Shown: positions 3,658 to 63,297 of the stretch, piece after piece
Position numbering within the stretch: position 1 is the stretch's first letter
Layout: each line of letters begins with the position of its first letter
Program-made: the position numbers and the translations under genes
The notes under the pieces: model-generated
The model's input: the letters and a program-made list of their open reading frames with translations, nothing else
Databases searched by the model: none
Told to the model about the DNA's origin: nothing
DNA from: Nannobrachium achirus
Taxonomy: Eukaryota > Chordata > Actinopteri > Myctophiformes > Myctophidae
Direction: 5' to 3'
Assembly (NCBI GenBank): GCA_963921795.1
Contig: OY997642.1
Span: 31,394,060 to 31,458,059 of the forward strand
Length of the DNA stretch: 64,000 nt

Positions 3658-4082
3658 CAGGCACGTGCACACATAGACATCAAAGGAGGCTTGAGCCCCT
3701 GCCCTTTTACCTGTCTGTAAAAAGTGCCCTCTCCAGACCATGAATGCATATATTTTTTTTACTATGGTGAAAGAAATGCAAATGCCCTCTTTCCATGCCA
3801 TACCTAAAGTCAGCATTCAAGAGAATTGCCTTGTCCAAACTCTCCTAAACTTGAATGCATCATCTTGAAAGAATTGCCCTCTCTTTGTAGAAATCCATGC
3901 CGTACACCACATCTCCGGTATTGATTTTATTATGCTTAGTTCAGTGTGGTATCAAGTAACAAAAATAGCCGACCTCCAAGCTCGTTGTGAGCTTGGAAGT
4001 CTGCTATTTTCGATATTTTCACCAAAACGCCCTTTTTAGAAATGTCAGCCCCTGCCTCTCTAACACTATCTGCACGTCCCTG
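3658..4082. mobile_element. hAT MITE family I, copy 1, perfect 8-bp duplication
   Basis: The element starts CAGGCACGTGCAC and ends GCACGTCCCTG. CATGAGAC occurs directly before (3650-3657) and after (4083-4090) with no mismatch. A second copy of the same family, about 467 bp, lies at 18931-19397. The interior is non-coding and contains the palindromic module at 3962-4011. The 8-bp duplication and CAG.. ends place it in the hAT superfamily. Confidence 0.9.
3962..4011. repeat. Palindromic module in family I copy 1 (shortened)
   Basis: The arms AAAATAGCCGACCTCCAAGC and the matching right arm surround a reduced centre. Both arms carry the family I variant CTCC/GGAA in place of the usual CTAC/GTAG. 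Confidence 0.8.
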
Positions 4083-4090
4083 CATGAGAC

Positions 4091-4811
4091 ACACTCTGGC
4101 CTACAGTCTGTACTCATGAGTGCAGCCTGCAAAATTAAATATCTTACAGTTGTCTTTTGTCTCCACGTTCATGTTGCCACTCTAATTTGAAGGGATGGGT
4201 GATATAACATCACTAAAATAATAAAATAAAAAGCAAGTCTCTTGCACACCTACAAGGCAACAGGTGCATCGAGGAGAAGACCAAACAAATGTCCATGAAA
4301 AAGAATGAAAAAGGAAAAACTCTCGCACGCTGTCTTAAAAGAGAAATCCCTTTTTTTTTTATATAACATCACAAAACAATATGGTGCATAAAATACATGC
4401 TGGTGGCCTGAGACTATGTGATGTCAGGGGAACCACCCTTAACAGAATGGGGTTGCCGCTCTGATATCACGCTCTGGCTTCACTGTAATGGCAACAGAAT
4501 CCCTTTTATGCCCTTATATGGAGTTCCCTGATGTCATCAATATTAAGCCCATATCTAACAGGACTTCATATGGGAATGACCTTATATGGAGGCCACATCG
4601 GCCACATACCACACTAACAGAATCCATATATGGCCAAGACAGATGGCCAAGACAGCCATATCTGTGTGGCTGGTTCTACAGACAGGGATCTCTATGTATG
4701 GGCATAAAAGGGTATGATTTCAGATGTCATAGACATCATAGGACTTTCACATAACGAATAACTGAGTAAGCATGTTTGGGCTCTCACAGCATATATTCAT
4801 ATACTCTCCTG
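4091..4811. other. Unassigned sequence
   Basis: There is a poly-T run near 4349 and short duplicated words (GGCCAAGACAG) near 4630-4665. No element boundaries or coding frames were recognised. Confidence 0.4.
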
Positions 4812-5010
4812 CGTCTCAAGTCCTTAAATCAATCCTATTTCCTATTTCCTAGTTTGTATGTTAGTCCCTCCCATTGAGGAAATAGAGAAGAGGAGACGTC
4901 CCATTGGCCATTTCTGATGACAACATCACAGGTGATAGGCCAACTCCCAGTGGGCGGGACTAACATACAAGGAAATAGGAAACAAGTGAAGGAAATAGGA
5001 ACTTGAGACG
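4812..5010. mobile_element. MITE with long inverted repeats, about 199 bp
   Basis: CGTCTCAAGT at the left end is matched by ACTTGAGACG at the right. Inside these, CTATTTCCT words and TGTATGTTAGTCCC pair with their reverse complements, so the inverted arms exceed 60 bases and leave a short unpaired centre. No clear target duplication was seen, so the superfamily is unresolved. Confidence 0.65.
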
Positions 5011-6366
5011 TGGCTTATCTCCTCTCTCAGCCTCATTTGAGCGCACCTGCGCTGATTAGGTACAAACGTCACAGAAGAACAAAAGAAGATATCGGACCAC
5101 CCAACCCATATATGGAGACCCCTGGTACCCATTATGATTTGTTGGGTAGGTAACGCCCTTCTATTACCTGGCCCAGGAGTGGGCATGGTCTTCTCCTGCC
5201 GTCTCTTCTCCCTTTCCACTGACTTCCCCCGCTGAGGGGCTCACCTGCAAGGTGGCTGCCTAGTCACACTCCACTATCTGTATATAATTGACAAAAGCGT
5301 TCCGATTATTTAGCAAATGAATCTGCATTCTGCAATGTTTCCTCAGTGCTGCATTGAGTTTTGTGATCTGACATTGAAATGTTCTGTTTCCCGTCATGCT
5401 GTTTTTCTCTGTATAAGCTGTAGAGTACATTCCCAGCACACTAATAATAGGCTTTCGCCGCTCACATCCATCAGTGGCCTTTGATGATGCTACTGTACAC
5501 TGTGTATGCATGTCTGCCCAAGGGATAAATCATGTAATGATCTATCTTGAATCAATCAAATTAAAAGGGGTCCACAGGGGTCTCAGAATTGTGACAGGTC
5601 TATACTTAAATGAACGTGACTTGTGAACAAATCCAGAGACGGAAGACAGAGACAAAGAGTTATTGATTCAAGAGGTTATTGATCCAACTTTTGTTGTAAT
5701 TTCAGCAAACCATAAAGGTCAATAAGTTACAGATTGTCTTTTTTTTTAATTATTTCTTTTACTCCATCTCTCTCTATTTGGGTGTGGGTTTGGAGTCCAT
5801 CACATCTCTGTCTAGTCCCATGTGACCGCTGTCATTTTCTGTGCAGTTAGAATTCAACTAAGAATGGCAGAATATAGTATTTTAGCATATAACACATGGA
5901 AAAGTACTCTAACGACATGCACGGTTCATGGTGGAAATAAATGAGCAAGGGCAGGGAGGGAGACAGAATACGTTTTCATTATTTGGGGATAATTTAGAAT
6001 GAAATTGTTATATTATTAAAAAATTTGACTAGAGGATACATCAACTATTCAAATGTATCCAACATACTAGGCCATAACTCACGCACCCTTTGGTTACAAT
6101 TCTGGTGTCTATAATGACTAATTGAGCAGTTTATTTATGACATTTTACTTACATAACACATTTTGTGCACAAACACCAACAGATGGAGCAAACTACTTCA
6201 ATTAGGCTACTGACAAAAAACATGCATTAATCAACCACCTGAACCCAACTTGGCCTGCAAAGCAACATTATTTATTATAGTATCACAATTGTCAAGACTG
6301 AGCTAAAAACAGAAATGGTTAAAATTGAATTATTTATTGATGCAGCAGCAACATTGAAGTCATTAA
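5011..6366. other. Unassigned sequence
   Basis: Mixed-composition DNA without recognised repeats or convincing coding frames. Confidence 0.45.
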
Positions 6367-6434
6367 CTCTCTCTCTCTCTCTCTCTCTCTCTCTCTCTCT
6401 CTCTCTCTCTCTCTCTCTCTCTCTCTCTCTCTCT
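6367..6434. repeat. (CT)34 microsatellite
   Basis: An uninterrupted CT tract of 68 bases. Confidence 0.98.
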
Positions 6435-61790: not shown

Positions 61791-61990
61791 CAGTATGACA
61801 CCAAATTGTGTCAAGTACTGAATAGTGAATAGAGGGTAGCTCACACAGCAGTCACTAGGTCTGATTAAGCTTGATCCAGAAAAGAACATAACAGTTCACC
61901 TTTTTTTTACCTTAACACTGGACAAATAAAGAAATACATGAAATAATAGCACAGCCTACCTCAGAGAGAACTTCCAGACAGTTTCCTTTT
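61791..61990. other. Unassigned sequence
   Basis: Nothing recognised. Confidence 0.4.
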
Positions 61991-62182
61991 TACTTGCATA
62001 TGTCCCACAACAACAACAAAATTATTAATAAAATATATTCCGGTGTGTTCACAACAAAAATATAATAATTAAAAAATATAATCCAGTGAGTTCACAACAA
62101 CAACAAAAATTATTTAAAAAAATATATTCCGGTGAGTTCACAACTACAAAAAATAATTTAAAAAATGTATTCCGGTGAGTTG
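61991..62182. repeat. Tandem repeat of about 45 bases, four copies
   Basis: TTCCGGTGAGTTCACAAC-like words at about 62038, 62082, 62127 and 62170 are separated by A/T-rich ACAACAACAAAAATTATT spacers. Confidence 0.75.
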
Positions 62183-62841
62183 CCAGATTAAACTGTAGGT
62201 CCAAAAAGAACTACCAAGATCCCCCAGAATTCACAGTGTCAGTTCAATCAGTTCTGAGTGCATGCGTTTGTGTCCCCCGCTGCCTCCTCTTGCCTGCATG
62301 TCCAGTGAGCTACCAGGTTTTAGGTCCAACCAGAACTAATTCAAGTTATATCAGTCCATAGTGTCCCTCTTGAAATGGACAGTTCCCCTGTGTCTCCCGC
62401 CTCTGCTGCTTTAGGTTGTCCTCTGCATCTGGGTTGAACGTCATGACGGCATCTGTAGAAAAAGAGAATACAAAATATGTAACATGCTGTCATAACCTTA
62501 CACCACCACATTGTCATGTTTTGCAAATTAAATTATTTACAGGTGTTTCTACAAGGTCACAATGCATACAAAAACTTGAAAACTTCACATCATGTTCACC
62601 CTCATAACCTTAAAATAACAAGAGTTCAGTTGGTTAAGCAGGCCCTCACCCAGAAGAATTAAATTGTAAGACACTGAAAACCACAGAACACCCAAACCGT
62701 ATACTGTGTTATGCTGTGCATTACTTCTTACTTACTTAAAAAGCTTGGTCACAGAGGTGCTTCTTCTCTCCATCCTCTCAACGACTGGACCCAAGCAGAC
62801 ACATCACGCCAGCTAAGAGAGAGAGAAGAAAGAAGGAAATA
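62183..62841. other. Unassigned, with an imprecise direct duplication
   Basis: AGGTCCAA..AGAACTA and TG..TCCCCCGCTGCCTC words near 62200-62290 recur near 62310-62410, suggesting an old duplication of about 110-130 bases. Confidence 0.4.
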
Positions 62842-62849
62842 GGTTAGAC

Positions 62850-63297
62850 CAGGGTTTCCTAAAGTGGGTGCTGTTGCACCCTAGGGTGCCTTGATGCCAG
62901 TCCAGGGGTGTCTCAGAATAATCTGATCATCAATATCACTACATCAATATCAGTTCACTAAGTAAAACTGACCTGATTTGTGAGGAGTTATTTTTCCATC
63001 TACGGCCAACTCTCTTCTGCAAAAATAGCAGATCTACAAGCTCACAACATGTCACGACGCGCTGTGAGCTTGTAGATCGGCTATTTTTGGTGAACCTTCC
63101 TCCCAGAATAGGGATGCTGGGGTTCAAGTGGTTAAACATAAAGTATAAAGTTATTTTCAGTCAGTTCTAATGGAAACTGATATTTCTCCAATGGTGTAAG
63201 ATTCAAAATATTTACAGTGTACTTCAAGGGTGCTGTGGATTAAAATATTATTTACAGGGGCGAGGTGACCCGAGTCAAAAATGTTTGAAACCCCCTG
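62850..63297. mobile_element. hAT MITE family F, perfect 8-bp duplication
   Basis: Starts CAGGGTTTCCTAAAGTGGG and ends AAAAATGTTTGAAACCCCCTG (last 20 bases AAAATGTTTGAAACCCCCTG). GGTTAGAC lies on both sides (62842-62849 and 63298-63305). The interior has the intact module at 63019-63090 and then AGAATAGGGATGCTGGGGTT, a flank shared with family C. 448 bp, non-coding. Confidence 0.92.
63019..63090. repeat. Palindromic module in F, intact
   Basis: GCAAAAATAGCAGATCTACA pairs with TGTAGATCGGCTATTTTTGG. Inner stem imperfect (ACATGTCACGACGCG). Confidence 0.9.

What the first reader, a model, noticed from the sequence alone, without database searches (positions are those of the whole stretch)
3962..63090. 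One palindromic module sits inside at least six unrelated MITE families
About 30 intact or damaged copies of a palindrome with arms AAAATAGC..GATCTACAAGCTCACA occur in 64 kb. They lie in elements whose ends differ: TA-flanked family B, and 8-bp-flanked hAT families C, E, F, G, I and K. The flanks beyond the arms also differ (GTGAAAAC in B, GCCAAAAA in C, TTTGAAAA in E, CACCGAAAA in I). Shared descent of the hosts does not explain this simply. Either the module is itself a mobile palindrome that lands in MITEs, or it is passed among them by recombination. I know of no described element of this kind.
Basis: partly seen in the sequence, partly recalled or inferred. Interest (0 to 1): 0.9.

Follow-up and report, generated by a model that had tools for sequence, protein, structure and literature searches.

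The report
Shared palindrome core in unrelated MITEs
A 73-base DNA palindrome of single origin sits inside several otherwise unrelated short transposons of this probably fish genome, in hundreds of thousands of copies, and seems to be taken up when new transposon families arise rather than to jump as a transposon of its own.

Summary
The window has 43 arm matches in 27 modules. The 16-mer core has 548,047 matches (up to 1 mismatch) in the 1.66-Gb genome, against 8 for the reversed pattern. The module is a 73-bp palindrome whose arms run on for a few bases that differ by host. Hosts have distinct ends: TA (B), and hAT-type ends with 8-bp duplications in four sets (C, G, I, K). Inner flanks fall into about five unrelated sets: B, C, K, I, and E with G, which share one flank. 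Modules of B, C and K form one clade (support 0.95), although these hosts share neither ends nor flanks. A palindrome that landed in already amplified MITEs is not supported: 36 module-free junctions of B and K are of 13 and 14 kinds, as deletions leave, and no target duplication shows. Between families, 40 of 60 pair differences lie on both arms, and all 40 keep pairing; an old mismatch at arm position 10 persists. I read it as a hairpin core taken up when families arise and then carried by the host's transposase. How the nearly bare palindrome gets into B, C, K and I is not shown. The closest known parallel is the domains shared by unrelated SINEs.

The parts
3961..4011 (.). module, centre deleted, in hAT host I (host 3658-4082, 8-bp duplication CATGAGAC)
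10291..10363 (.). full 73-bp module in host B (host about 10182-10447)
12306..12353 (.). damaged module, first of an inverted pair in a G-type element
12622..12670 (.). collapsed module, second of the G-type inverted pair
12743..12771 (-). single damaged arm, flank like C
13490..13563 (.). module in a host whose right flank matches L028 and L032
16925..16997 (.). module in host E (hAT-like ends by eye; left flank shared with G)
19259..19331 (.). module in hAT host I (host 18931-19397, duplication GTAGCATG/GTGGCATG)
20018..20046 (-). single arm, flank like C
21470..21542 (.). full module in host B (host 21364-21622, TA on both sides, 20-bp ends with 2 mismatches)
22068..22138 (.). module with decayed right arm in host E (right edge approximate)
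24164..24228 (.). module in an O-type host (right flank ACTAGTTTGGG)
29673..29720 (.). part-deleted module in host B
30788..30838 (.). part-deleted module in hAT host K
32769..32820 (.). part-deleted module in host B
38994..39022 (+). single arm, flank like the right half of C
39743..39815 (.). diverged module, right flank weakly like C
40097..40160 (.). module in host C (hAT 39946-40399, duplication GTCTAAGG)
41952..41997 (.). collapsed module in host C
42891..43050 (.). C core with TTAACCACTTGAA..TCAAGTGGTTAA and a collapsed module at about 42980-43009
43245..43317 (.). diverged module
44120..44192 (.). first module of hAT host G (host 44049-44486, duplication GTACTGTG)
44323..44395 (.). second, inverted module of hAT host G
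48135..48163 (+). weak single arm (21/29), may be decayed or chance
51949..52021 (.). module in host B (form ATAGC)
59580..59652 (.). module in host B
63021..63088 (.). module with one C-like flank (TTAACCACTTGAACCCC), not inside a recognised hAT

Best explanation
The module is a non-coding palindromic core of 73 bp, of single origin, able to form a near-perfect DNA hairpin. It travels as a passenger of host elements and has no fixed ends of its own. A host family takes it up at or before its founding, then the host's transposase multiplies both together; dead copies decay and often lose the palindrome by deletion. For E and G the visible route is a piece of an older module-bearing element, with one shared flank, lying inside other ends. 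For B, C, K and I little but the palindrome is shared; I infer capture of a fragment, or repair of a break with a hairpin, followed by amplification. Shown: single origin, different host ends, host-specific module lineages for G, K and I, a B-C-K module clade across different hosts, varied deletions, two-sided changes that keep pairing. Inferred: the way in, and that lineages able to amplify are filtered for a working hairpin.
For: Host ends differ, with 8-bp duplications for C, G, I, K and TA for B. Modules cluster by host: G 0.95 (7), K 0.92 (5), I 0.96 (3); B's ten are unsupported as a group (0.0; eight of them 0.84). B, C and K modules together 0.948. Arm position 10 is mismatched C.T in 4 of 5 K, 3 of 3 I and the 1 C, and in B C.T in 4 and C.A in 4 of 10. 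E and G share a left flank with one L011 copy (medians 16.25 and 13; E-G 8.5; null 99% 8.5) but not the right one. Host pieces mostly lie near a module: B 15/15 and 21/22, K 1/1, 10/11 and 8/9, G 18/20 and 14/15, E 9/10, 8/10 and 8/10, I 5/6, 5/6 and 4/7, C 1/1 and 6/7. Module-free B and K junctions are of 13 kinds in 20 and 14 kinds in 16. Over 38 pairs 90.6% of cells pair; 22 pairs change on both sides, shuffles 14.7 +- 1.7. Between five family sequences 40 pair differences are two-sided, all Watson-Crick, and 20 one-sided.
Against: In B, C, K and I no donor sequence is recognised beyond a few bases, so capture must have stopped close to the palindrome several times; that is what an inserted palindrome would also give. 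One of 16 K junctions equals the predicted clean empty site and 5 of 20 B junctions share one short form. A third of the differences between families are one-sided, and families are related, so the covariation counts are not independent. C is not linked to E or G (medians 5.25 and 2.75, within the null), so the nesting route rests on E and G. No second genome was at hand.
Confidence: 0.43

Rival explanations
1. The palindrome is itself mobile, as a tiny foldback element or a hairpin inserted at breaks, and landed in the founders of several MITE families.
For: B, C, K and I share little more than the palindrome, yet B, C and K modules form a clade. About 600,000 copies; 65 of 84 flank clusters hold a single arm. 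One clean K junction (L057) and a repeated B form.
Against: No constant end: arms extend by different bases in different hosts, in inverted order. B and O share 8 further bases on the right, so the unit has no fixed size. No coherent empty class in B or K (only 40 of 423 and 40 of 396 candidates were scored). No target duplication seen.
Confidence: 0.25
2. Most module-bearing hosts descend from one TTAA-flanked ancestor, and other ends came by later nesting, so the sharing is ordinary descent.
For: E and G share a flank with an L011 copy that begins TTTAACCACC. Three C-type cores have TTAACCACTT..AAGTGGTTAA (L005, L033, window 42.9 kb). 34 of 136 module centres have one TTAACCACTT-like end, against 378 of 3000 random places.
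Against: The stricter test found TTAA ends at 1 of 137 centres, and that one lies inside the G palindrome pair; controls 2. C does not align with E or G. K, I and B show no such flank.
Confidence: 0.1
3. The module spreads by gene conversion or template switching between MITEs that already hold it, which mixes halves and keeps arms alike.
For: Half-sharing of E and G; a chimeric remnant at 53.8 kb; two-sided changes.
Against: It cannot explain first entry into a family. Modules of G, K and I stay together. Mismatches at arm position 10 (K, I, C, B) and at 14 and 24 (G) would be erased by full conversion of arms.
Confidence: 0.13
4. Chance or convergent palindromes.
For: None found.
Against: No shuffle reaches the counts; reversed-pattern control 8 against 548,047; shared mismatch and module clade.
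Confidence: 0.01

Closest known systems
Highly conserved domains of SINEs (V and others) and the V domain inside the MITE MER6
   Same: A non-coding central domain shared by otherwise unrelated non-autonomous elements and carried into a DNA transposon (PMC6887750, abstract and section 2.4 read).
   Different: Here the domain is a palindrome and the hosts are DNA transposons of several end types. The sequences were not aligned with each other.
Angel element inside Tol2
   Same: An inverted-repeat element carried inside a hAT transposon (one figure legend of PMC8151067 read).
   Different: One host in that passage. Sequence and size were not compared; the original Angel paper is recalled, not read.
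hAT MITEs (hosts C, G, I, K)
   Same: CAG..CTG ends and 8-bp duplications.
   Different: The hosts look ordinary; a shared palindrome is not a defining part of such MITEs (from general knowledge).
Foldback transposons and palindromic MITEs
   Same: Hairpin-forming inverted repeats.
   Different: Those are bounded by their inverted repeats (general knowledge). Here the palindrome is internal and has no constant outer end.

Membership tests
hAT non-autonomous elements (hosts C, G, I, K) | 8-bp target duplication with CAG..CTG inverted ends | tested here: met
   16 of 137 module centres (14 distinct elements, one in L030 looks spurious, three are hAT elements with B nested inside), against 2 at random centres (400 attempts, those near a module skipped); exact copies include GTCTAAGG, GTACTGTG, CATGAGAC, TTCTACTG, GCCTAGAG
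hAT non-autonomous elements (host E) | 8-bp target duplication | tested here: inconclusive
   ends look hAT-like by eye but one search found no duplication for E
TTAA-flanked element (C core; piggyBac- or Kolobok-like, names recalled) | TTAA on both sides and inverted ends | tested here: inconclusive
   three C-type cores by a loose test (5 of 136 centres in all, 19 of 3000 random places); the stricter test found only one of 137, inside the G palindrome pair, controls 2
TA-flanked element (host B) | TA on both sides and inverted ends | tested here: met
   21364-21622, 20-bp ends with 2 mismatches. One copy only; at least two of six copies lack a clean TA pair. Superfamily not determined
Independent mobile palindrome (foldback element) | constant outer end | tested here: not met
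   inverted agreement ends within a few bases, with different bases in different hosts
Independent mobile palindrome (foldback element) | empty host sites with one common junction | tested here: not met
   13 junction kinds in 20 B copies, 14 in 16 K copies; capped search, 40 scored of 423 and of 396 candidates; I not answered
SINE-type highly conserved domain | same domain in unrelated non-autonomous elements | tested here: met
   several end types with one module lineage; an analogy, not membership
SINE-type highly conserved domain | hosts are SINEs, domain kept across distant animals | not testable with these tools
   hosts here are DNA transposons; no other fish genome was at hand
Described RNA family | Rfam match at gathering score | tested here: not met
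   0 matches in the window

The most novel reading that the evidence does not exclude
The palindrome is a portable amplification module: a DNA hairpin that helps unrelated cut-and-paste MITEs of at least two end types to multiply, so that families which take it up become the most abundant repeats of the genome. Compatible facts: the five largest repeat groups of the sample (37, 23, 21, 12 and 12 segments) hold an arm in 26, 13, 18, 7 and 8 segments, while the next group (11) has it in 1; and two-sided changes between families keep the pairing.
Probability: 0.2. Interest if true: 0.88.

Novelty: new variant of a known kind. Interest (0 to 1): 0.62.

Why it matters
Domains shared by unrelated SINEs are known, and to my knowledge their role is unsettled. 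A DNA-transposon counterpart, in about 600,000 copies and with visible paired changes, would give a second and cleaner system in which to ask whether such shared cores help amplification or only hitch-hike. It is also a concrete case of new MITE families built around a part of old ones.

Tried and rejected
Chance: rejected. A described RNA: no Rfam match in the window. IMG/VR and GTDB contigs: 0 exact matches to one pattern. Printed sequence: six 16-letter stretches searched in the PMC library, 0 papers; concept searches (listings; two returned none). Module kept alike after insertion: with copies picked by their flanks, module substitutions are like the flanks' except in B, where they are fewer, and gaps are more frequent in the module in all six families tested, 0.17-0.41 against 0.02-0.20. 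An earlier comparison suggested a better conserved module, but its copies had been picked by good arms and its flanks could run past the host, so I dropped it. I therefore lowered the best explanation from 0.50 to 0.43 and raised the mobile palindrome from 0.18 to 0.25. That nearly all changes are two-sided was also wrong: 40 of 60 are. Central position as a cause: I's module lies at about 0.75-0.80 of its host (worked out). Pfam: two of ten window ORFs have weak matches below the cut-offs. Not clean empty sites after reading: I copies in L018 and L032, which keep arm stumps. Left unresolved: L016 and L031 hits of I, L025, L030 and L031 hits of E, and the B, K, C and G exceptions.
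Full report
What is there. The window comes from an unnamed 1.66-Gb genome of 564 contigs, probably a fish by its repeats (my judgement from recalled repeat types, not tested). The 16-mer GATCTACAAGCTCACA has 38 matches with up to 3 mismatches in the window (0.71 expected). A 29-nt arm finds 43 sites in 27 modules. Genome-wide there are 548,047 matches with up to one mismatch, against 8 for the reversed pattern. In 26 ten-kilobase stretches at round coordinates, 22 hold at least one module, 91 in all, which scales to about 600,000; the arm scan on the reversed stretches gives 1 hit against 135.

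Anatomy. Of 57 modules with both arms in the sample, 31 are exactly 73 bp. The common form is GAAAATAGC-N-GATCTACAAGCTCACAACG.. and its reverse complement about a 3-base centre. As single-stranded DNA five modules with 3 bp on each side fold at -39.6 to -44.4 kcal/mol, z -14.7 to -16.8. Beyond the 73 bp the two arms of one copy agree for about three more bases (0.68, 0.66, 0.74 against 0.38, 0.30, 0.31 between copies) and then fall to about background; these bases differ by host (50 modules). They are inverted repeats, not target duplications.

Hosts. A search for ends and target duplications around 137 module centres found 16 with hAT-like ends and 8-bp duplications, in 14 distinct elements, against 2 at random centres (400 attempts, those near a module skipped). 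They are I (window 3658-4082, 18931-19397; L026), C (window 39946-40399; L005, L020), G (window 44049-44486; L012), K (L012, L032), three hAT elements with B nested inside (L015, L018, L023), and one repetitive stretch in L030 that looks spurious. B itself passed the TA test in one copy (21364-21622); by eye at least two of six aligned B copies lack a clean TA pair. Most of the 36 TA hits of that test lie in the palindrome itself and mean nothing. The TTAA test found one of 137, inside the G palindrome pair, against 2 in controls. A looser test found TTAACCACTT-like ends on both sides of 5 of 136 centres (random 19 of 3000); three of these are clear C-type cores (L005, L033, window 42.9 kb). 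E has hAT-like ends by eye but no duplication was shown.

How related the hosts are. Flanks of 207 arms fall into 84 clusters, 65 of them single. In an anchored comparison E-left and G-left align with one L011 copy that begins TTTAACCACC (medians 16.25 and 13.0) and with each other (8.5, at the null's 99% of 8.5, highest pair 23), while their right flanks differ. C-left with that L011 copy gives 7.5, with E 5.25 and with G 2.75, so C is not clearly linked (null 95% is 5.5). C-right and M-left are weakly alike (7.0), and B-right and O-right share 8 bp. K, I and B match neither C nor L011 (medians 4.0 or less). That leaves about five unrelated inner flank sets among well-sampled hosts: B, C, K, I and E with G. 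By eye, one E copy (16925) keeps the shared flank out to TTAACC at 37 nt, other E copies have changed letters there, and G keeps about 12 nt on one side and about 24 on the other inside its hAT ends. For E and G this is what a nested and trimmed piece would leave.

Was the module there when the families were founded? Pieces of hosts away from the module mostly have an arm within 350 bp: B 15/15 and 21/22, K 1/1, 10/11 and 8/9, I 5/6, 5/6 and 4/7, E 9/10, 8/10 and 8/10, C 1/1 and 6/7, G 18/20 and 14/15. Two I copies that seemed empty keep arm stumps (L018, L032), and an E copy in L029 holds a decayed module by eye; the other exceptions were not resolved. A genome search with joined B flanks gave 45 matches, 24 of them crossing the junction, from 40 scored of 423 candidates. 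Twenty of the 24 were fetched: five read AAAAGTAGTAGTTT, two AAAAGTACTAGTTT, three have extra AGT units, and the other ten keep stumps or other filler, 13 kinds in all; none is the predicted clean site. For K, 46 matches from 40 scored of 396 candidates; I fetched 16 of at least 18 that cross the junction. One (L057) has the predicted clean junction, three share CTATATACAATTT, and the rest differ or keep arm stumps, 14 kinds in all. I read these as deletions of an unstable palindrome, but the one clean K copy and the repeated B form keep the other reading alive. The I query did not complete.

Descent of the module. In a tree of 31 full modules, rows turned by hand, those of G (7, 0.95), K (5, 0.92) and I (3, 0.96) form clades; B's ten group without support (0.0), eight of them with 0.84. 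C and E have one full copy each. B, C and K modules together have support 0.948, and C with K 0.703, although B is TA-flanked, C and K are hAT with different ends, and their flanks are unrelated. So the module has moved between unrelated hosts in its later history. Arm position 10 is mismatched C.T in 4 of 5 K, 3 of 3 I and the one C, in B C.T in 4 and C.A in 4 of 10, and paired A-T in 6 of 7 G; G has its own mismatches at 14 and 24.

Paired changes. Over 38 pairs and 31 sequences, 90.6% of cells pair; 22 pairs show changes on both sides (shuffles 14.7 +- 1.7, 0 of 500 as high), and sliding the partner by 1-3 columns drops pairing to 30-46%; the position-10 pair fails in 17 of 31. Because families are related, the shuffle is not a probability. 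Between five family sequences, 40 pair differences are on both sides, all Watson-Crick in both families, and 20 are on one side; these comparisons overlap and C rests on one copy. After insertion the module gets no special care: with copies found by their flanks, substitutions are as in flanks except in B, and gaps are more frequent. So pairing is kept in lineages that found families, not in dead copies. Either hairpin formation helps founding, or arms are now and then converted to each other; the lasting mismatches speak against complete conversion.

Weight in the genome. 92,299 of 332,096 sampled bases are repeated within the sample; 42,042 lie in merged segments that hold or adjoin an arm. 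The five largest repeat groups are mostly module-bearing (26/37, 13/23, 18/21, 7/12, 8/12); the sixth (11) has it once. The grouping is greedy, nested elements blur it, and the sample includes six loci picked by the motif.

Conclusion. I hold that it is a palindromic core taken up when families are born and moved by whatever transposase serves their ends (0.43). That the nearly bare palindrome is itself inserted, in family founders, is the main rival (0.25). The nearest known idea is the conserved domain shared by unrelated SINEs, one of which entered a mariner MITE (PMC6887750, abstract and section 2.4 read); Tol2 carries an internal Angel element (PMC8151067, one legend read). I found no paper on this palindrome in the searches, of which searched its letters; the library holds only open-licence papers.

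Noticed in passing
L034:663-1214 (G000:C1:3708063-3708614): A 45-bp tandem array, 12.4 copies, whose unit contains CAGATCTACAAGCTCACA: one arm of the module has become a minisatellite.
   Followed up: partly
L006:2130-2660: Another tandem array of about 52 bp per unit, built from a G-type arm and sequence like the G host (GATATACAAGCTCACAGCGCGGGCCCAAGGTGGAGGGGCCCTG), seen.
   Followed up: no
window 53704-53850: A chimera: a hAT-like end (CAGGGGTGTTCAACAGGGGGTCCGG) joined directly to the right half of an E element at the base of a module arm (TCTGCTATTTTCAAACATTT).
   Followed up: no
L008:1460-1610: A foldback-like element with about 31-bp inverted ends (TTGAAGTGCGCATTT[C/G]AAGGGCTATGACGTC) next to the module on one side and 11 nt away on the other.
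   Followed up: no
window 50116-50454: Inverted repeat of 50 nt, 98% complementary, 239 nt apart, with no arm hit in it: a separate MITE candidate.
   Followed up: no
L018:7555-8037 and L023:3746-4315: B elements nested in a hAT with ends CAGGGACGTGCTGG and exact 8-bp duplications TTCAGTGG and GCTGGGAG.
   Followed up: partly
L016:3737, L027:3737 and 4087, window 48135: Scattered old modules share an outer flank like GGTGTCAC..C next to GAAAATAGC on one or both arms; possibly an older, longer palindrome (by eye; of the two aligned only L027 supports it).
   Followed up: partly
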